DNA of 6,639 bases. Source: JAYEMH01 sp034717985 [NCBI: Candidatus Ratteibacteria bacterium] (lineage in GTDB: Bacteria > CAZDME01 > JAYEMH01). Of this stretch, positions 1 through 5,473 are shown one piece after another (the first letter of the stretch is position 1; each line of letters begins with the position of its first letter). Under the pieces are notes generated by a model. The model ran no database searches and had not been told where the DNA came from. It saw nothing but the letters and a program-made list of their open reading frames with translations. Made by a program: the position numbers and the translations under genes. The stretch covers positions 1 to 6,639 of the forward strand of contig JAYEMH010000049.1 in assembly GCA_034717985.1 (NCBI GenBank). The letters run 5' to 3'.

Positions 1-660
1 CATCGCTAAAATATATTCGTTCCAGACAGTTAATGAGTTGAATATTACCACTACCGCTATCGCCGGGCGGGCCAGCGGTAAAGCTACCCGCCAGTAAATT
101 CCAAATTTGGAACAGCCGTCAATCCGGGCCGCATCCTCTAAGTCCTCGGGGATTCGTTCAAAAAAAGTCTTGAATAAAAATATAGCTAAAGGCAGGCCCC
201 CGTTTATTAAAGGAAGGATATAGCCGATGCGGGTATTAGCCAGACCCAGTTTCATTAACAGAAGATAAAGAGCGATAATCGCTCCGGGAACCGGTATGAG
301 CATGGTGGCAATCAATAAAAAGAAAAAGAAATTTCTCCCCGGGAATTTCAACCGGGCTAAAGCATAGGCCGCCATCGAGCCGATAATAACAATGCCGGCG
401 ACTACTACGACGGTGTACAAAATGCTGTTAAAAAAATATGTCCCGAAATGTCCCTTTGTCCAGGCGATATAGTAATTTATAAAATTGAATTGCCGGGGGA
501 TTAAACTCATATCTTCGAAAATTGTCTGATTGGTTTTTAAACTGGCGGAAAGCGTCCAGACCAAGGGAAAAAGACAGGCTATGGCGACAACAAGCAAAAT
601 AATCTGGATGCCAAGCTGGTTCAAAAAACTTTTTATTTTATACTCTAAAGAAATCTTCAT
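1..660 (-). CDS. MalG-like sugar ABC transporter permease (partial, C-terminus outside window)
   Basis: This is the inner-membrane permease partner of a carbohydrate ABC importer of the CUT1 (MalG/UgpE-like) type. I translated it by hand: it opens with ATG at 660 (MKISLEYKIK), reads 220 codons without a stop and leaves the window at position 1. Hydrophobic segments lie near residues 17-39, 78-100, 110-134 and 146-165. The EAA loop that docks on the ATPase is clear at about 174-199 (EDAARIDGC, followed by LPLARP). The last visible residues, VWNEYILAM, match the conserved W-N-E-(F/Y) stretch of MalG proteins, so roughly 50-60 residues should be missing. An in-frame stop lies one codon upstream of the ATG, which fixes the start. 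No convincing Shine-Dalgarno sequence sits at normal distance; the leader is repeat-like sequence. It follows the MalF-like gene after an unusually long gap of about 310 bp. Family certain; sugar unknown. Confidence 0.93.
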   Translation of the reverse strand, partial: MKISLEYKIKSFLNQLGIQIILLVVAIACLFPLVWTLSASLKTNQTIFEDMSLIPRQFNFINYYIAWTKGHFGTYFFNSILYTVVVVAGIVIIGSMAAYALARLKFPGRNFFFFLLIATMLIPVPGAIIALYLLLMKLGLANTRIGYILPLINGGLPLAIFLFKTFFERIPEDLEDAARIDGCSKFGIYWRVALPLARPAIAVVVIFNSLTVWNEYILAM

Positions 661-696
661 TATTTAATTCGTGCCAATCCGTCCCTTTAAATCTAT

Positions 697-780
697 ACCA
701 CAGAGTCACAAAGACACCAAGCACACAAAGCTGTAATAAAACCATTCTTTTTTATCTCTTTGCGTCTCTATGCGCTGGTT
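697..780. repeat. Imperfect palindrome, CACAGAG / GCAAAGAG type
   Basis: The left arm CACAAAGACACCAAG (about 707-721) and the reverse complement of the right arm, CATAGAGACGCAAAG (about 758-772), agree at 11 of 15 positions. Most differences are transitions, which G-U pairs would tolerate on one strand. The A/T-rich loop lies at about 731-750. It lies upstream of the MalG-like start and would be transcribed in that gene's leader if the operon is read through. Its role is unknown; it is more likely a dispersed repeat than a regulatory site. Confidence 0.55.
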
Positions 781-855
781 AGATTCTTTTCCTGTGTTTA
801 TTTTTTCGTTTTTTTCTTTCCCCTTTTTTCCTTATTTTTTTGGCTCCCTATTAGC

Positions 856-875
856 GGGACGGGCATGCCCGTCCC
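856..875. repeat. Perfect 20-bp GC-rich palindrome
   Basis: GGGACGGGCA is followed directly by its exact reverse complement TGCCCGTCCC. The flanks add partial symmetry (TTAGC on the left, CCTACA on the right). It stands out as very GC-rich inside an AT-rich spacer. As RNA it could fold only with a few central bases sacrificed as a loop. No long U run follows immediately on either strand (the minus strand continues with GCTAATAGGG), so I do not call it an intrinsic terminator. It is best described as a short palindromic repeat. Confidence 0.8.
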
Positions 876-970
876 CTACATATTTTTTAATTCTTTTTAA
901 TCCTGTAAATCCTGTCAGAAACTTTCTATCTTTATTTTTGCATTTTTTTTCTTTTCTGTGGTTCGGGGTT

Positions 971-1882
971 TCAAAAATGAGGTTTGAATTTTCTGGAAAT
1001 TTTAATTTGAATTAACGAAAAGAAAAGAAGTATTAAACCGAAAAAAATGCCCTGGGAGCAGGCATAACCAAAACGCTGGTTGTTTAGAATATTGCTGATT
1101 ATCCGGGTAATCGGAACTTCGGTATGATATCCGGGACCGCCGCCAGTGGTGGCCACGATGATATCGTAAATCTGCATCGTGCCTAAAATGGTAAGAATAA
1201 GCACGACCACAAAAACCGGTATCATCAAAGGAAAAGTAATCTTTCGAAATGTATGCCATAAATTCGCGCCGTCAACCCGAGCCGCCTCATAAAGTGGACG
1301 CGGAATACTCTGGAGTCCAGCCAGCATTATCACAAATCCCCAGCCAAATCCTTTCCACATATGAACTATTGCCACCGCCGTTAAAGCTGATTCGGGCCGG
1401 GCTAACCAGGGACGGATTATTTCAGAAAAACCAACCAAACTCATAAAATGATTCAACAATCCGTGCTTGTCAAAAATCCAGGTCCAGATTAAACCAACCA
1501 CAATTCCCGATAAAACCGGCGGTAAATAAAAAACCACCCGGTAAAATTTCCCGCCTTTGATATCACGATCACAGGCCAGAGCCAGAATTAAAGCCAGGCC
1601 ATTCTGCACGGTTAGAGCTAACAAGGTAATATAGCCGGCCTGGCCCAGCGATTTCCACCAGATAGGATTGCTAAAAATGATATCTTTGTAATTCCATAAA
1701 CCAACAAACTTTTTGGCTATCCCGATGCCGCTCCAGCTAAAAAAACTAAGCCGGACCATACTCAAAAAGGGATAAATGCTAAGGACTACAAAAAGGGTTA
1801 AAGCCGGCAGAATAAAAAGGTAATTTGTTAACAGCGCCTTTAACTTGTATTTTCTGGAGATTTTTTTAGCGGGCTTCCGCAT
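971..1882 (-). CDS. MalF-like sugar ABC transporter permease
   Basis: This 303-residue integral membrane protein is the MalF/UgpA-type permease of a CUT1 carbohydrate importer, forming half of the transmembrane channel. A basic N-terminus (residues 1-16) precedes about six hydrophobic segments near 19-41, 83-105, 117-137, 167-190, 220-240 and 276-296. The EAA motif that contacts the ATPase is at about 198-222 (YEAARVDGANLW, then ITFPLMIP). The TTGGGPG turn at 245-251 is typical of MalF-like permeases. Length is normal for the shorter MalF homologues, which lack the large periplasmic loop of E. coli MalF. The ATG at 1882 lies inside the end of the binding-protein gene, giving a 17-bp overlap that suggests translational coupling. 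An AGGAG (complement of 1896-1900) sits 13 bases upstream, rather far for a ribosome binding site. Its partner permease follows only after the repeat-filled spacer. Confidence 0.95.
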   Translation of the reverse strand: MRKPAKKISRKYKLKALLTNYLFILPALTLFVVLSIYPFLSMVRLSFFSWSGIGIAKKFVGLWNYKDIIFSNPIWWKSLGQAGYITLLALTVQNGLALILALACDRDIKGGKFYRVVFYLPPVLSGIVVGLIWTWIFDKHGLLNHFMSLVGFSEIIRPWLARPESALTAVAIVHMWKGFGWGFVIMLAGLQSIPRPLYEAARVDGANLWHTFRKITFPLMIPVFVVVLILTILGTMQIYDIIVATTGGGPGYHTEVPITRIISNILNNQRFGYACSQGIFFGLILLFFSLIQIKISRKFKPHF

Positions 1883-3167
1883 CCTGCCTTTTTTTCTCCT
1901 CTCTTATCTTTACCTCTTGAATTTCTTTGGCTAACTGCCGGGGAGTCTTTTCTCCGATAACAATTGATTGAATCCCCTTGTTCATAGTTTCGCGGACTAA
2001 AGGAAATTCAGTTACCGGCCAGATGTTTGGATGGGTTACGATATCCATATCATTGGCAAATTCGGCCAGAATTGAGGGAATCGCCTCTAAACTTTTTTGA
2101 TTGGCCGGGAGATTGAGCGTCTTCTCTGACAGATAGGTCTGTTGAGGAGCGGCGGTCAGCCACTTAAGAAATTCAACCGCCTGTTTAGTTTTTGCGGATT
2201 TTTTATTAACCATAAAAGATGAACCGGCGCCGCCCCAGATACGCATCGAATTTTCATCAGAGATAAACGGGGGAGGAAAAACGCCATAATCCAATTCCGG
2301 ATTCATTTCTTTATAAACATTTACACACCAGGAACCGTTAAAAGCCATAGCGGCTTTTTCGGTGGCAAAAAGGCGTTCCGCGGTTTTGTTTACCATAATC
2401 ACAATACCGTCATATAACAAACCCGCATCTTCCATTGTTTTGAAAAGTGAAAACACCTTTATCCATTCCGGATCGGTATAAGGGACATCGCCTCGAAAGG
2501 TGGCGAAAACCTTTTCCTCACCCATTAAATTCATCGCCCAATCCAGGGTTAAAGATTCAATCATCCATATTTCTCCCCAGCCGCTGACAAAACCATCGAT
2601 GCCGGCCTTTTTTAATTTTTTGGCCACATTGATAAACTCCCACCAGCTTCTGGGCGGCTGCTCCGGATTCAGACCTGCCTTTTGGAAAAGCTTTTTGTTA
2701 TAGACCATCTGAATATTGGTAACATCCAGCGGCACCCCATAAATACCCGATTTTATTTCAAACCTATTTCCCGGTTCGAATTCGTTGACCGCTAAAGCTC
2801 GCGGGAAAAACCTATTGCGCCATTGGCCGACGTTGGCATTCATCTCATCGGTTAAATCAAGAACATAACCGGCTTTGACAAAAAGGGCAAAAACTTCTTT
2901 TTCCCCTAAGATTCCATAGATATCCGGGAGAGTATCCGTCTGAGCCGCCGCCTTTATTTTCTGAGAGTAGGCATCAGAAGGGGCATATAGACAAAATTTT
3001 GTTTTCACTCCGGTTATCTTTTCATATTTGTTACCAAGCTCCGCAAAGGTTTCCTGCCGGTCGGTCATCCAGTGCCAAACGACAATTTCCTCTTTAATCT
3101 CTGCTTTCTTCCGGCCGCACCCGCCGATAAGCAGTCCGAGAATTAAAAGTAGTATAATCTTTTTCAT
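1866..3167 (-). CDS. Extracellular sugar-binding lipoprotein of an ABC importer
   Basis: This 433-residue protein is a solute-binding protein of the extracellular family 1 type (MalE/UgpB-like), which captures a sugar or oligosaccharide outside the membrane and delivers it to the permeases encoded next. A lipoprotein signal is visible: MKK, a hydrophobic stretch at residues 4-14, then the lipobox LIGGC with the lipidated Cys at 17. Typical family stretches follow: LPDIYG (80-85), GIYGVPLDVTNIQMVYNKKL (141-160), AMAFNGSW (273-280) and WGGAGSSFMVNKKS (311-324). The C-terminus is highly charged (about 414-433, rich in Lys, Glu and Arg) and overlaps the MalF-like gene. The start is supported by a strong AGGGAGG site six bases upstream. 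Trp and aromatic residues are frequent, as is common in carbohydrate binders, but the ligand cannot be deduced. The family call is firm. Confidence 0.94.
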   Translation of the reverse strand: MKKIILLLILGLLIGGCGRKKAEIKEEIVVWHWMTDRQETFAELGNKYEKITGVKTKFCLYAPSDAYSQKIKAAAQTDTLPDIYGILGEKEVFALFVKAGYVLDLTDEMNANVGQWRNRFFPRALAVNEFEPGNRFEIKSGIYGVPLDVTNIQMVYNKKLFQKAGLNPEQPPRSWWEFINVAKKLKKAGIDGFVSGWGEIWMIESLTLDWAMNLMGEEKVFATFRGDVPYTDPEWIKVFSLFKTMEDAGLLYDGIVIMVNKTAERLFATEKAAMAFNGSWCVNVYKEMNPELDYGVFPPPFISDENSMRIWGGAGSSFMVNKKSAKTKQAVEFLKWLTAAPQQTYLSEKTLNLPANQKSLEAIPSILAEFANDMDIVTHPNIWPVTEFPLVRETMNKGIQSIVIGEKTPRQLAKEIQEVKIREEKKRQDAEAR

Positions 3168-3173
3168 TTTCTA

Positions 3174-3180
3174 CCTCCCT
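3174..3180 (-). promoter_or_regulatory. Strong ribosome binding site of the sugar-binding lipoprotein gene
   Basis: On the minus strand the sequence reads AGGGAGG, then TAGAAA, then ATG at 3167. This near-perfect Shine-Dalgarno match with a six-base spacer is the best in the window and fixes the start. The abundant binding protein of an importer often has stronger translation signals than its permeases, which fits here. Confidence 0.85.
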
Positions 3181-3186
3181 TTAGAT

Positions 3187-3250
3187 AGTTTACCGGTTCT
3201 CCGGTTTGCCAGTTCACCGGCGAACAGGCTAACGGGTTAACCAGTTAACA
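3187..3250. repeat. ACCGGTT-type imperfect palindrome between etfA and the lipoprotein gene
   Basis: The left arm (about 3188-3215: GTTTACCGGTTCTCCGGTTT and onward to GCCAGTTC) resembles the reverse complement of the right arm (about 3221-3248: GTTAACTGGTTAACCCGTTA and onward to GCCTGTTC) at roughly 20 of 28 positions, around a short centre ACCGGCG. Within each arm, GGTT-like and AACC-like units recur every 7-10 bases, so it is also a degenerate tandem repeat. It fills almost the whole 77-bp gap. The right arm reaches the etfA stop codon (3245-3247). Confidence 0.7.
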
Positions 3251-4435
3251 ATTTACTTCTTTTAATTTGTTTATCAACAGCGGCACGATTTCAAAAAGGT
3301 CGCCGACAAGGCCATAATTAGCCGCTTTAAAAATTGGCGCCTGGGGATCTTTATTTACCGCCACGATAATCTTAGAACTTTGCATACCGGCTAAATGCTG
3401 AATCTGGCCGGAGATTCCGCAGGCAATGTAGATATTCGGACAAACAGTTTTTCCCGTCTGGCCGACCTGATGAGAATAAGGTATCCAGCCGGCATCTACC
3501 ACACTGCGCGAAGCCCCAACAGCCCCGCCCAGGACTTTAGACAAATCTTCGATTAACTTAAAATTTTTGGCCTCGCCTAAACCGCGCCCCCCGGAAACAA
3601 TAATATTCGCTTCGGTCAGATTTACTTTTTGAGTCAGGTCTTCAACCATATTCAGCACTTTGGTTTCGCCCGAAATATCCAGCCCATCGATATTTTTCCT
3701 TATTATTCTGCCTTTCCGGTTTTTATCAAATTCGGCTTTTTTCATTACTTTATGACGAACGGTAGACATCTGGGGACGCTGCTCCGGGCAGATAATGGTA
3801 GCCATAATATTTCCCCCGAAAGCCGGCCGGGTTTGCAAAAGAATTTTCTTCTCCGGATTAACAGCTAAACCGGTGCAATCGGCGGTTAGCCCGGTTCTAA
3901 GACGGGCTGCTACCTTGGGAATCAGACTGCGCCCGATGGCGGTCGCCCCGGCCAGAAAAATCTCCGGCTTTTCTTCTTTTATCAAATGGACTAAAATTCT
4001 GCTAAAAGGTTCGTCCCGGAAACTTTCAAGTTCTTTATCTTCGGCTACAAAAACCTTATCGGCTCCATAACCAATAAGGCTGGAAGATAAAGAATCAACC
4101 TGACTGCCAATCAGCACCGCCGATAAATCCGAATTTAGCTCATCGGCTAATTTTCTTCCTTCTCCCAGGAGCTCATAAACAACCGGCATAATTTCTCCCC
4201 GGCGGGATTCAGCGAAAACCCAAACGCCTTTATAACTTTGCTTATCGGCAATTTCTTCCTTTTTAACATCCATGATAATCGCCCCAAATTTACAGGCTTC
4301 AACACAAGCGCCGCAAAGATTACACTGCGGCAGAATCCGCGCCTTCTTATCAACCATTTCAATCGCCCCGTATGGACAGGCCGAAAGGCACAGTTTACAT
4401 CCGGTGCATTTATCTTCAATTATTTTTATAGCCAC
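3245..4435 (-). CDS. etfA: Electron transfer flavoprotein alpha subunit with N-terminal 2[4Fe-4S] ferredoxin domain
   Basis: EtfA pairs with EtfB to shuttle electrons to or from acyl-CoA dehydrogenases through FAD. At 396 residues it is some 60 longer than plain EtfA because of an N-terminal ferredoxin domain: C10-x2-C13-x2-C16-x3-C20-P and C38-x2-C41-x2-C44-x3-C48, two complete [4Fe-4S] ligand sets. The second lacks the usual Pro after the last Cys (Lys49). The ETF alpha/beta nucleotide-binding fold starts near residue 69 (KGVWVFAE). The C-terminal FAD domain has GGRGLG (282-287), GASR (307-310), HQVGQTG (322-328) and the EtfA signature from I335 to N361 (IYIACGISGQIQH, then VAVN), followed by KDPQAPIF. 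The start is GTG, with GAGG seven bases upstream. EtfA proteins with such a ferredoxin domain are known in bifurcating systems, for example CarE of Acetobacterium and LctC-type lactate dehydrogenase ETFs. It follows etfB by 132 bp, occupied by a large palindrome. The stop codon lies in a repeat element. Confidence 0.96.
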   Translation of the reverse strand: MAIKIIEDKCTGCKLCLSACPYGAIEMVDKKARILPQCNLCGACVEACKFGAIIMDVKKEEIADKQSYKGVWVFAESRRGEIMPVVYELLGEGRKLADELNSDLSAVLIGSQVDSLSSSLIGYGADKVFVAEDKELESFRDEPFSRILVHLIKEEKPEIFLAGATAIGRSLIPKVAARLRTGLTADCTGLAVNPEKKILLQTRPAFGGNIMATIICPEQRPQMSTVRHKVMKKAEFDKNRKGRIIRKNIDGLDISGETKVLNMVEDLTQKVNLTEANIIVSGGRGLGEAKNFKLIEDLSKVLGGAVGASRSVVDAGWIPYSHQVGQTGKTVCPNIYIACGISGQIQHLAGMQSSKIIVAVNKDPQAPIFKAANYGLVGDLFEIVPLLINKLKEVNC

Positions 4436-4453
4436 AACCTATCCTCGTAAAAT

Positions 4454-4558
4454 AAAAAATCAGCGTAAAACGTAAAGCTGAAAATGTAAAACCATAATTC
4501 AAAATTTAAAACTTTTGAATTTTAAGCTATGGTTTTTCATTTTACGTTTTGATTTTTT
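4454..4558. repeat. 105-bp AT-rich palindromic element between etfB and etfA
   Basis: Four exact pairing blocks are nested: AAAAAATCA (4454-4462) with TGATTTTTT (4550-4558); AAAACGTAAA (4467-4476) with TTTACGTTTT (4541-4550, sharing one base with the first block); AAAACCATA (4488-4496) with TATGGTTTT (4528-4536); and TTCAAAA (4498-4504) with TTTTGAA (4513-4519), leaving an eight-base loop. The left arm carries extra short segments (GCGT at 4463 and about GCTGA at 4477), so the arms differ by small insertions. A transcript from either strand could form a long hairpin edged by a U run. Because it is AT-rich and lies inside an apparent operon, I call it a repeat rather than a terminator. Confidence 0.8.
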
Positions 4559-4567
4559 CGCTATTGT

Positions 4568-5359
4568 TTATACCATCTTCGTCTCTTTTAACTTCTCCGC
4601 TAATTTCTCCACCTGCTCCTCAGGAGTCCCTTCTATTATTTCCCCGTCAGTTCTCGCTTCAGGAGTAAATATCTTGATTACCAGAGTGGGAGAGCCGTCA
4701 AGACCGATTCTTTTTTCATCCAATTTTAAATCTGAAGCCGTCCATCTGATAATTTCCTCCTTTTTTGCCCGCAGCATCCCTTTAAACGAAGGAAGTCGGG
4801 GCTCATTTATTTCTTTAACCACAGTAATAAGTGCCGGCAAACTTGTTTCCACCACCTCATAACCCTCTTCGAGCATCCTTTCTACTCTGAGATATTTAGC
4901 CTCCGGTTTAATTTCTTCTATTTTCCGGACATAGGCAATATGCGGTATCCCTAAAGTTTCGGCAATTCCCGGGCCAACCTGGGCGGTGTCCCCATCCATA
5001 GCTTGCTTTCCGCAAATAATTAAATCGAATTGTCCGTATTTCTTTAAACCCTGAGCCAGGATATAGGAGGTAGCCAGGGTGTCGGAGCCGGCAACAGCTC
5101 TATCGCTAATTAAAATTCCGTCGTCAACACCTAAGGAAACTGCTTCCCGAAGAGCCGCCTCTGCCTGAGGCGGTCCCATACTAATGGCCGTAACCTTTCC
5201 CGTCATTTTTTCCTTGAGCCTTAAAGCCTCCTCCATGGCATAGGTGTCAAAAGGATTGATGATACCGGGAATGCCTTCCCGGATCAAGGTATTGGTTTCC
5301 TGATTAATCTTTACGTCCGCATTTTCCGGAACCTGTTTGATACAGACAACTATATTCAC
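4568..5359 (-). CDS. etfB: Electron transfer flavoprotein beta subunit
   Basis: EtfB forms the heterodimeric ETF with EtfA and binds a second nucleotide: AMP in classical ETFs, or the bifurcating FAD in bifurcating ones. The 263-residue length is normal. The N-terminus MNIVVCIKQVPE and NPFDTYAMEEALRLKE (35-50) are typical. Residues 86-99 (DRAVAGSDTLATSY) and 116-130 (CGKQAMDGDTAQVGP) belong to the nucleotide pocket. The reading DGDTAQVGP resembles clostridial and Acidaminococcus bifurcating ETFs as I recall them, not the DDDCNQTGQ form of mammalian AMP-binding ETF. EINEPRLPSFKGMLRAKK (183-200) is the ETF-beta signature and includes the loop that docks on the dehydrogenase. The start is GTG with AGGA eight bases upstream; no better start is apparent. 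It lies 114 bp after the acyl-CoA dehydrogenase gene. Confidence 0.96.
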   Translation of the reverse strand: MNIVVCIKQVPENADVKINQETNTLIREGIPGIINPFDTYAMEEALRLKEKMTGKVTAISMGPPQAEAALREAVSLGVDDGILISDRAVAGSDTLATSYILAQGLKKYGQFDLIICGKQAMDGDTAQVGPGIAETLGIPHIAYVRKIEEIKPEAKYLRVERMLEEGYEVVETSLPALITVVKEINEPRLPSFKGMLRAKKEEIIRWTASDLKLDEKRIGLDGSPTLVIKIFTPEARTDGEIIEGTPEEQVEKLAEKLKETKMV

Positions 5360-5386
5360 TTCTGAATTCCTATTAACTAATAGATA

Positions 5387-5473
5387 AGAAAGAAGGGAAA
5401 CGGCAGATGGGAAACGGAAAGCCTAATTTTTGTCTTTTACCATCTTCCTTCTTCCGTCTACCTTTTTCCTTTT
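5387..5473. repeat. Purine/pyrimidine-asymmetric imperfect palindrome between the dehydrogenase gene and etfB
   Basis: The left part (about 5387-5420) is almost all purine on the plus strand and contains GGGAAACGG twice (5395-5403 and 5409-5417). The right part (about 5434-5473) is almost all pyrimidine (CATCTTCCTTCTTCCGTCTA and onward). The reverse complement of the right part (GGTAGACGGAAGAAGGAAGA then TGG) resembles the left part, so a long imperfect hairpin is possible. It fills most of the 114-bp gap. No promoter was recognised here. Confidence 0.6.

What the first reader, a model, noticed from the sequence alone, without database searches (positions are those of the whole stretch)
661..5473. 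Four consecutive spacers each hold a different imperfect palindromic element
Gaps 661-970, 3168-3244, 4436-4567 and 5360-5473 are all largely palindromic or repeat-like, yet their sequences are unrelated (CACAGAG type, ACCGGTT type, AAAACGTAAA type, GGGAAACGG type). Finding this in every real gap between genes suggests many coexisting families of small non-autonomous palindromic elements that occupy intergenic DNA. They may be mobile, or they may be a general mode of spacer evolution by hairpin templating. Their arms differ by indels and transitions, as expected if they decay independently but keep pairing.
Basis: seen in the sequence. Interest (0 to 1): 0.6.

Follow-up and report, generated by a model that had tools for sequence, protein, structure and literature searches.

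The report
Repeated-word palindromes inserted between operon genes
Four gaps between neighbouring genes are filled by different, decayed palindromes, each built from short repeated "words" of seven or eight bases, and comparison with related operons suggests that at least two of them are inserted DNA that pushed apart genes which normally touch.

Summary
All four gaps are self-complementary beyond dinucleotide shuffles, but only gap 3 clearly folds better than shuffled sequence. Gap 1 is a composite of a CACAGAG octad palindrome, a GTAG...CTAC hairpin and an AATCCTGT array. In relatives, etfB-etfA nearly abut in 30 of 32 loci and acd-etfB in 21 of 23; in the window these junctions are 132 and 114 bp and mostly palindrome. 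Both long etfB-etfA relatives carry other word palindromes. Many such families occur elsewhere, often nested, swapped between orthologous spacers, one dispersed within a genome, one shared across bacterial phyla and phage contigs. Best reading: small non-autonomous hairpin elements, seeded by dispersal and remodelled by slippage and arm templating; the enzyme is unknown. Precedents exist (Geobacter metallireducens paired octa/heptanucleotide sites, Xanthomonas GGGAATC, REPs), so this is a new variant of a known kind. The window's genome is not held, so copy number at home is untested.

The parts
690..785 (.). Gap 1, CACAGAG-type octad palindrome (words CACAGAG T CACAAAG A CACCAAG CA CACAAAG; other arm CTCTTTG C GTCTCTA)
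   Evidence: Self-reverse-complement 48, reached by 2 of 1000 shuffles of 690-790 and 7 of 1000 of the whole gap; profile of 121 CACAGAG arms has its three best window hits here: 1.0 at 706, -7.2 at 698, -19.4 at 747; only the first exceeds the maximum of 40 Markov controls (-5.0; mean -18.6)
853..879 (-). Gap 1, GTAG...CTAC-type hairpin around the perfect 20-bp palindrome GGGACGGGCATGCCCGTCCC (856-875), REP-like
   Evidence: Sequence; 850-885 folds better than shuffles, 1 of 300
899..916 (.). Gap 1, AATCCTGT-A-AATCCTGT-C array of a 9-nt word, one arm only
   Evidence: Sequence; a similar array in 25 IMG/VR stretches, three pairs of which are duplicates; 8 of 28 occurrences have an inverted word upstream
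3188..3249 (.). Gap 2, octad palindrome (GTTNACCG words), reaching 5 bases into the end of etfA
   Evidence: 0 of 1000 shuffles; lag 8 z 6.5
4454..4565 (.). Gap 3, AT-rich heptad palindrome (ACGTAAA words) between etfB and etfA
   Evidence: 0 of 1000 shuffles; lag 7 z 4.5, lag 14 z 4.0; MFE z -5.2; in relatives this junction is -4 to 32 nt in 30 of 32 loci
5386..5471 (.). Gap 4, purine-rich heptad palindrome (AAACGGN, AGATGGN words) between acd and etfB
   Evidence: 4 of 1000 shuffles; lag 7 z 7.5, lag 14 z 6.0; in relatives this junction is -4 to 23 nt in 21 of 23 loci
1..660 (-). Context: sugar ABC permease (MalG type), 3' end outside the window
   Evidence: PF00528
971..1882 (-). Context: sugar ABC permease (MalF type)
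   Evidence: PF00528
1866..3167 (-). Context: solute-binding protein; overlaps malF by 17 bases, the only junction without an element
   Evidence: PF13416, PF01547
3245..4435 (-). Context: EtfA with N-terminal ferredoxin domain
   Evidence: PF01012, PF00766, PF00037
4568..5359 (-). Context: EtfB
   Evidence: PF01012
5474..6631 (-). Context: acyl-CoA dehydrogenase
   Evidence: PF00441, PF02771, PF02770

Best explanation
Each gap holds one or more small insertion elements of one structural class, here called word palindromes: two inverted arms, each a short degenerate tandem array of one 7-9-nt word, around a variable loop. Steps that are shown: the architecture; strong expansion of two normally tight operon junctions; different families at orthologous spacers elsewhere; dispersal of one family within one other genome. 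Steps that are inferred: a hairpin copy lands in non-essential junction DNA (carried by an unidentified enzyme or as a single-stranded replication by-product), later elements land in its loop or flank (nesting), and replication slippage by whole words plus template switching between the arms then changes word number and partly homogenises the arms while they drift. They are mainly selfish or neutral spacer DNA, tolerated where translation signals remain: before malE (GGGAGG) and etfA (GAGGA) a ribosome-binding stretch lies outside the palindrome; before malG none is evident and before etfB only a weak AGGA.
For: Self-complementarity and 7-8-nt periodicity in all four gaps. Tight junctions in relatives: etfB-etfA -4 to 32 nt in 30 of 32 loci (28 of 30 after removing two genomes counted twice), acd-etfB -4 to 23 nt in 21 of 23 (20 of 22), against 132 and 114 bp here. 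Both long etfB-etfA exceptions are other word palindromes (L006 0 of 1000 shuffles, lag 9 z 5.3; L230 0 of 1000, lag 8 z 3.9). Outside the window, 33 of 38 periodic spacers (of 293 examined) have period 7 or 8. Same class, many words, nested; L131 has five word palindromes with four different outer words. Dispersal: G094 has 50 matches of the CACAGAG word pair; of 10 loop matches aligned, 7 share both arms and loop in unrelated flanks, one has lost the right arm, one the left, one both. Turnover: L090/L111 (85-90% identical) gain or lack CACAGAG pieces in both directions; L112/L115 (68-75% identical) hold the same element with different word number at one spacer, different families at the next, and a CACAGAG shell around a CGCGAAG core only in L112 at another. 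Patchy sharing: three-word CACAGAG grammar with up to one mismatch in 14 of 247 and 4 of 249 genomes of two other phyla, with 0 hits of the reversed pattern; 68 IMG/VR stretches against 0 for the reversed pattern. Slippage: L154 carries a 12-base internal duplication. Window ribosome-binding stretches.
Against: No genome is held for the window, so home copy number is unknown. MFE does not support gaps 1 and 4. Linker covariation is marginal: 19 of 37 complementary against 12.9 expected, 122 of 5000 permutations; in G094 alone 2 of 5 against 1.6. 34 of 59 distinct palindromic stretches in the IMG/VR loci, 7 of 10 in the Sumerlaeota-phylum loci and 6 of 7 in the EtfA-relative loci were not periodic at the threshold, so other palindrome types are at least as common. 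No target duplication is visible in G094. Y1 transposases are not associated: present in 9 of 11 CACAGAG-positive and 7 of 11 other genomes, absent from the richest, G094. One of four long junctions in relatives (L228) is not palindromic by the test (151 of 1000) and another (L221) only modestly (22 of 1000), neither word-periodic. G531 has 12 CACAGAG matches but its 218 kb scanned gave one palindrome, not of this type. Strict triple-word patterns for the words of gaps 2-4 are rare.
Confidence: 0.6

Rival explanations
1. Purely local origin: each spacer makes its own palindrome by slippage of 7-8-nt units and template switching in hairpins on the lagging strand, with no moving element.
For: Different words in every gap; unit-number change at an orthologous spacer; period 7-8 dominates among periodic spacers, which matches the idea, reported in PMC4679880, that 7 nt is the polymerase contact length; template switching at imperfect inverted repeats is established (starts of abstracts of PMC7202029 and PMC3820800 in the listing).
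Against: The same word recurs in separate spacers of one contig and across phyla; G094 copies share loops as well as words; tight junctions leave little spacer DNA to start from.
Confidence: 0.25
2. Paired binding sites for a nucleoid or global regulator protein, as proposed for Geobacter metallireducens.
For: Same layout, paired tandem octa/heptanucleotides on opposite strands (PMC2700814, passages); the CACAGAG family often keeps 8 then 9 spacing with free linkers and loops.
Against: Four different words in four junctions of one run of genes; families swap between orthologous spacers; no protein identified here.
Confidence: 0.1
3. Ordinary terminators, attenuators or chance low-complexity sequence.
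For: All genes run one way and hairpins can stop transcription; gap 1 is rich in T runs; MFE is unremarkable for gaps 1 and 4.
Against: None of 10 terminator-like matches lies in the four gaps, and 10 is the shuffled level (mean 9.5); no Rfam match reaches a gathering score (5 weak microRNA-family matches only); 0-7 of 1000 shuffles reach the self-complementarity.
Confidence: 0.05

Closest known systems
Geobacter metallireducens 'predicted global regulator binding sites' classes 1-3 (Aklujkar 2009, PMC2700814; passages seen)
   Same: Pairs on opposite strands, each site three to five tandem repeats of 7-9 nt, variable distance (stated for classes 1 and 2), several to many places; class 2, TCTCCGTS[Y], read on the other strand contains ACGGAGA, i.e. 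the CACGGAG octad (my reading).
   Different: Described in one genome as possible protein sites; no insertion into tight junctions, nesting, turnover or cross-phylum word sharing in the passages seen. Its class 4 is based on a pentanucleotide.
Xanthomonas GGGAATC heptamer repeats (Rehm 2015, PMC4692102; passages seen)
   Same: Intergenic heptads; 70 and 75 convergent inverted pairs in two genomes.
   Different: One word per genome group, interpreted as G-quadruplex DNA; the similar Nostoc repeats rarely pair.
TAACTGA heptamer repeats of Beggiatoaceae and Cyanobacteria (MacGregor 2015, PMC4679880; passages seen)
   Same: Intergenic heptads with patchy distribution; horizontal transfer suggested without mechanism.
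   Different: Direct repeats; one indirect repeat against 169 direct sets in the main genome.
GTAG-tagged REP elements (Di Nocera 2013, PMC3733652; abstract and one section read)
   Same: Piece 853-879 is a short perfect palindrome beside GTAG, in a spacer.
   Different: The other pieces are longer, imperfect and built of words; copy number untested.

Membership tests
Paired tandem octa/heptanucleotide sites (G. metallireducens type) | Tandem 7-8-nt units | tested here: met
   Lag 8 in gap 2, lag 7 in gaps 3 and 4, lag 8 in gap 1, the last less clear
Paired tandem octa/heptanucleotide sites (G. metallireducens type) | Two sites on opposite strands | tested here: met
   Self-reverse-complement above shuffles in all four gaps
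Paired tandem octa/heptanucleotide sites (G. metallireducens type) | Multicopy in its genome | not testable with these tools
   No genome held for the window
GTAG REP (piece 853-879 only) | Palindromic stem of 6-13 bp with unpaired GTAG at one end | tested here: inconclusive
   Arms of 10 bp and GTAG present, but the other flank can partly pair with it (TAGC against CTA; sequence)
GTAG REP (piece 853-879 only) | High copy number | not testable with these tools
   No own genome; 0 matches of the exact pattern in IMG/VR and 0 in the 264 loci held at that time
MITE | Terminal inverted repeats | tested here: met
   Inverted arms in window and in G094 copies
MITE | Target-site duplication | tested here: inconclusive
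   None seen by eye in the G094 copies; not testable for the window
MITE | Conserved internal sequence tied to a parent transposon | tested here: inconclusive
   In G094 some copies share a loop, others have unrelated loops; a parent transposon was not sought
RAYT-mobilised element | Y1 transposase in the genome | tested here: not met
   For the CACAGAG family, not for the window: no match in the richest genome G094 (draft assembly); 9 of 11 positive and 7 of 11 other genomes have one

The most novel reading that the evidence does not exclude
Word palindromes are one unrecognised class of genetic element that spans bacterial phyla and their phages: hairpins written in a 7-9-nt word grammar, spread by a dedicated but unknown DNA- or RNA-templated activity that lays down tandem words on both arms, and responsible for much of the spacer DNA in the genomes that carry them.
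Probability: 0.25. Interest if true: 0.85.

Novelty: new variant of a known kind. Interest (0 to 1): 0.55.

Why it matters
If general, much intergenic DNA in some uncultured bacteria and phages is neither ancestral spacer nor regulatory sequence but layers of tiny palindromic insertions with a common 7-9-nt grammar. The tight acd-etfB-etfA junctions give a clean comparison of filled and empty sites, and the sharing of words such as CACAGAG across phyla poses a direct question: which enzyme or process copies them.

Tried and rejected
The ACCGGTT word is rare in the Sumerlaeota-phylum genomes and near control level (15 of 40 genomes with one mismatch allowed); strict triple-word patterns for gap 2 and gap 3 words and a two-word pattern for gap 4 found 1, 3 and 2 IMG/VR stretches. 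Of these, the L130, L133, L134 and L135 arrays are one-armed: no palindrome was called there. No plasmid hit for the L022 element. Terminators, Rfam RNAs and Y1 transposases rejected as explanations. The ORF mask evidently missed the L006 etfB-etfA palindrome, so its 0 of 32 for the EtfA-relative loci is an undercount. The reversed control is not clean (36 hits against 181): long CACAGAG arrays can themselves match the reversed pattern, which I infer from the pattern and did not check hit by hit; the longer patterns gave 0. In one search, 37 of 46 pairs with one-base linkers on both sides were used; 9 were dropped, and a few rows are overlapping readings of one element. In one search, 36 loci were given: for etfB-etfA 32 were measured, three (L009, L010, L012) dropped because the match began inside EtfA and one (L001) was off the stretch; for acd-etfB 23 were measured; L004/L020 and L018/L220 are the same genomes twice; 20 of the further full-length EtfA places were fetched, not all. 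The IMG/VR loci were chosen because they contain CACAGAG or other word patterns, several are near-identical contigs, and five were hand-picked for one row, so their rates are not unbiased; most G092, G094, G338 and G531 stretches were also chosen around CACAGAG hits. Papers: nine searches found no paper describing the general class; the held library is open-access only.
Full report
What is there. The window holds six genes on the minus strand, in order of transcription acyl-CoA dehydrogenase, etfB, ferredoxin-etfA, sugar-binding protein, two ABC permeases. All four gaps align with their own reverse complement better than dinucleotide shuffles: 7, 0, 0 and 4 of 1000 shuffles reach the observed score, with arm identities of 71-82%. 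By folding energy only gap 3 stands out (0 of 300 shuffles); gaps 2, 1 and 4 are reached by 16, 32 and 91 of 300. So these are decayed palindromes rather than strong hairpins. In the coding controls one stretch near 3986-4117 reached z 4.0-4.6, so single values of that size can occur without such an element.

The hidden common design. Self-matching at fixed offset shows that the arms are tandem arrays of short words: gap 2 lag 8 (z 6.5), gap 4 lag 7 (7.5) and 14 (6.0), gap 3 lag 7 (4.5) and 14 (4.0), gap 1 lag 8 (4.3, with lag 4 at 4.2 and lag 9 at 4.0); a repeat of the test put gap 1 at lag 10 (z 3.9). Gap 1 is a composite: a CACAGAG octad palindrome at 690-785, a perfect 20-bp palindrome beside GTAG at 856-875, and the array AATCCTGT-A-AATCCTGT-C at 899-916. 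A profile of 121 CACAGAG arms from other genomes puts its three best window hits in gap 1; the top one, 1.0, exceeds the maximum of 40 Markov controls (-5.0), the second and third do not.

They look like insertions. The window's genome is not held, so I used relatives found by EtfA. Among loci with measurable junctions, etfB-etfA is -4 to 32 nt in 30 of 32 and acd-etfB is -4 to 23 nt in 21 of 23 (two genomes are in the first count twice, one in the second). In the window the same junctions are 132 and 114 bp. The two long etfB-etfA junctions in relatives are both other word palindromes: L006 (Sumerlaeota record) with a GGTCCCTGT nonamer and L230 with a CCCTCTCC-like octad (0 of 1000 shuffles each; lag 9 z 5.3 and lag 8 z 3.9). 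Of the two long acd-etfB junctions one is modestly self-complementary (22 of 1000) and one is not (151 of 1000). Gaps 1 and 2 could not be compared in this way.

The class elsewhere. Starting from one pattern in IMG/VR (68 stretches; 0 for the reversed pattern), a de novo scan found palindromes built of many different words: CGTGAAT, GGAATTGA, ACGCGAAG, AGCTGCA, CGGCTTT, GGGACCA, GCATCAG, and in contigs found by the other patterns AGTTCTC, GGTCGTT, AGTAACA. Of 59 distinct palindromic stretches in L062-L135, 25 were periodic: lag 7 twelve times, lag 8 five, lag 9 four, others four; 34 were not. In the Sumerlaeota-phylum loci 3 of 10 were periodic and in the EtfA-relative loci 1 of 7. In 293 spacers outside the window 38 were periodic, 33 with period 7 or 8 (many loci were chosen for their content). 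All four of four window spacers were both palindromic and periodic, against 3 of 105, 1 of 65 and 0 of 45 in three cellular genomes (its 0 of 32 in EtfA-relative loci misses the L006 case). Elements nest: CACAGAG arms around CGCGAAG, ATGGGAA or AAATTGC cores; a GTAG...CTAC palindrome just before an AATCCTGT array in 3 of 35 occurrences, on two contigs, as in gap 1.

Dispersal, turnover, sharing. In the Sumerlaeota-phylum genome G094 the CACAGAG word pair matches 50 times. Five further copies are 90-93% identical over 89-110 bp on other contigs. Of 10 loop matches aligned, 7 share both arms and loop in unrelated flanks, without visible target duplication; one has a 12-base internal duplication; one lacks the right arm, one the left, one both; other G094 copies have the same arms around unrelated loops. 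Orthologous spacers of related contigs differ: L090 and L111 each carry CACAGAG pieces that the other lacks; L112, which encodes a tail sheath and so is phage-like, and its relative L115 share an AATTGAGG element with different unit number, hold different families in the next spacer, and differ in an outer CACAGAG shell around a CGCGAAG core further on. The three-word CACAGAG grammar (8 then 9 spacing, up to one mismatch) is patchy: 14 of 247 genomes in the phylum of a Spirochaetales record and 4 of 249 in that of a Candidatus Frackibacter record, with 0 reversed-pattern hits.

Mechanism. Shown: class architecture, expansion of normally tight junctions, turnover, intragenomic dispersal of one family. 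Inferred: hairpin-shaped copies are moved or laid down by an unidentified activity, then altered by slippage in whole words and by template switching between arms. A dependence on Y1 (REP-type) transposases is not supported: 9 of 11 CACAGAG-positive and 7 of 11 other genomes have one, and the richest has none (draft genomes). Arm-to-arm templating has weak support: linker bases are complementary in 19 of 37 pairs against 12.9 expected (122 of 5000 permutations). Terminators are not supported, and no Rfam match reaches its gathering score.

Known relatives. The nearest description is Aklujkar 2009 (PMC2700814, passages): in Geobacter metallireducens, paired sites on opposite strands built of tandem octa- or heptanucleotides, at 24, 21 and 8 places, suggested to bind regulators; class 2 (TCTCCGTS[Y]) reads as the CACGGAG octad on the other strand. 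Rehm 2015 (PMC4692102, passages) reports 70 and 75 inverted GGGAATC pairs in two Xanthomonas. MacGregor 2015 (PMC4679880, passages) reports patchy TAACTGA heptads, suggests horizontal transfer, and cites Mrazek 2007 (not seen) for heptads as the most abundant long simple repeats in most genomes and for 7 nt as a possible polymerase contact length. Subirana 2019 (PMC6749651, passages) mentions heptamer-derived satellites and possible transposition. GTAG REPs: PMC3733652, abstract and one section. A Bacteroides fragilis paper (PMC3090145, one passage) happens to print a primer with the CTCTGTGTTCTCTGTGGTG string beside an invertible promoter, without comment on a repeat in that passage. Nine searches of the held library found no paper on the general class. 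Hence a new variant of a known kind, with the cross-phylum word sharing as the open and most interesting part.

Noticed in passing
L143, L146, L152: Tiny perfect palindromes of the type TCCGCCTCAGGCGGA sit inside the arms of CACAGAG elements in genome G094, as if inserted there.
   Followed up: no
L006 2367-2485: The etfB-etfA junction of a Sumerlaeota contig carries a different 9-nt word palindrome at the position corresponding to window gap 3.
   Followed up: yes
L228 acd-etfB junction (103 nt); L230 etfB-etfA junction (97 nt): Two further expanded junctions: L230 is a CCCTCTCC-type palindrome; L228 reads like a fragment of another dispersed element (resemblance recalled, not searched) and is not self-complementary by the test.
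   Followed up: partly
L251, L256 and window 853-916: A GTAG...CTAC palindrome lies shortly before an AATCCTGT array in each, a recurrent composite.
   Followed up: partly
L176-L195 (genome G531): Five of 45 spacers are heptad-periodic without being counted as palindromic, so one-armed word arrays exist too.
   Followed up: no
window 3986-4117: A coding stretch of etfA is unusually self-complementary (z 4.0-4.6 in the genic control).
   Followed up: no
PMC3090145 (Bacteroides fragilis, BF2782 invertible promoter): A published primer there contains CTCTGTGTTCTCTGTGGTG, the CACAGAG word pair with its usual outer end, so the family may also occur in Bacteroidota.
   Followed up: no
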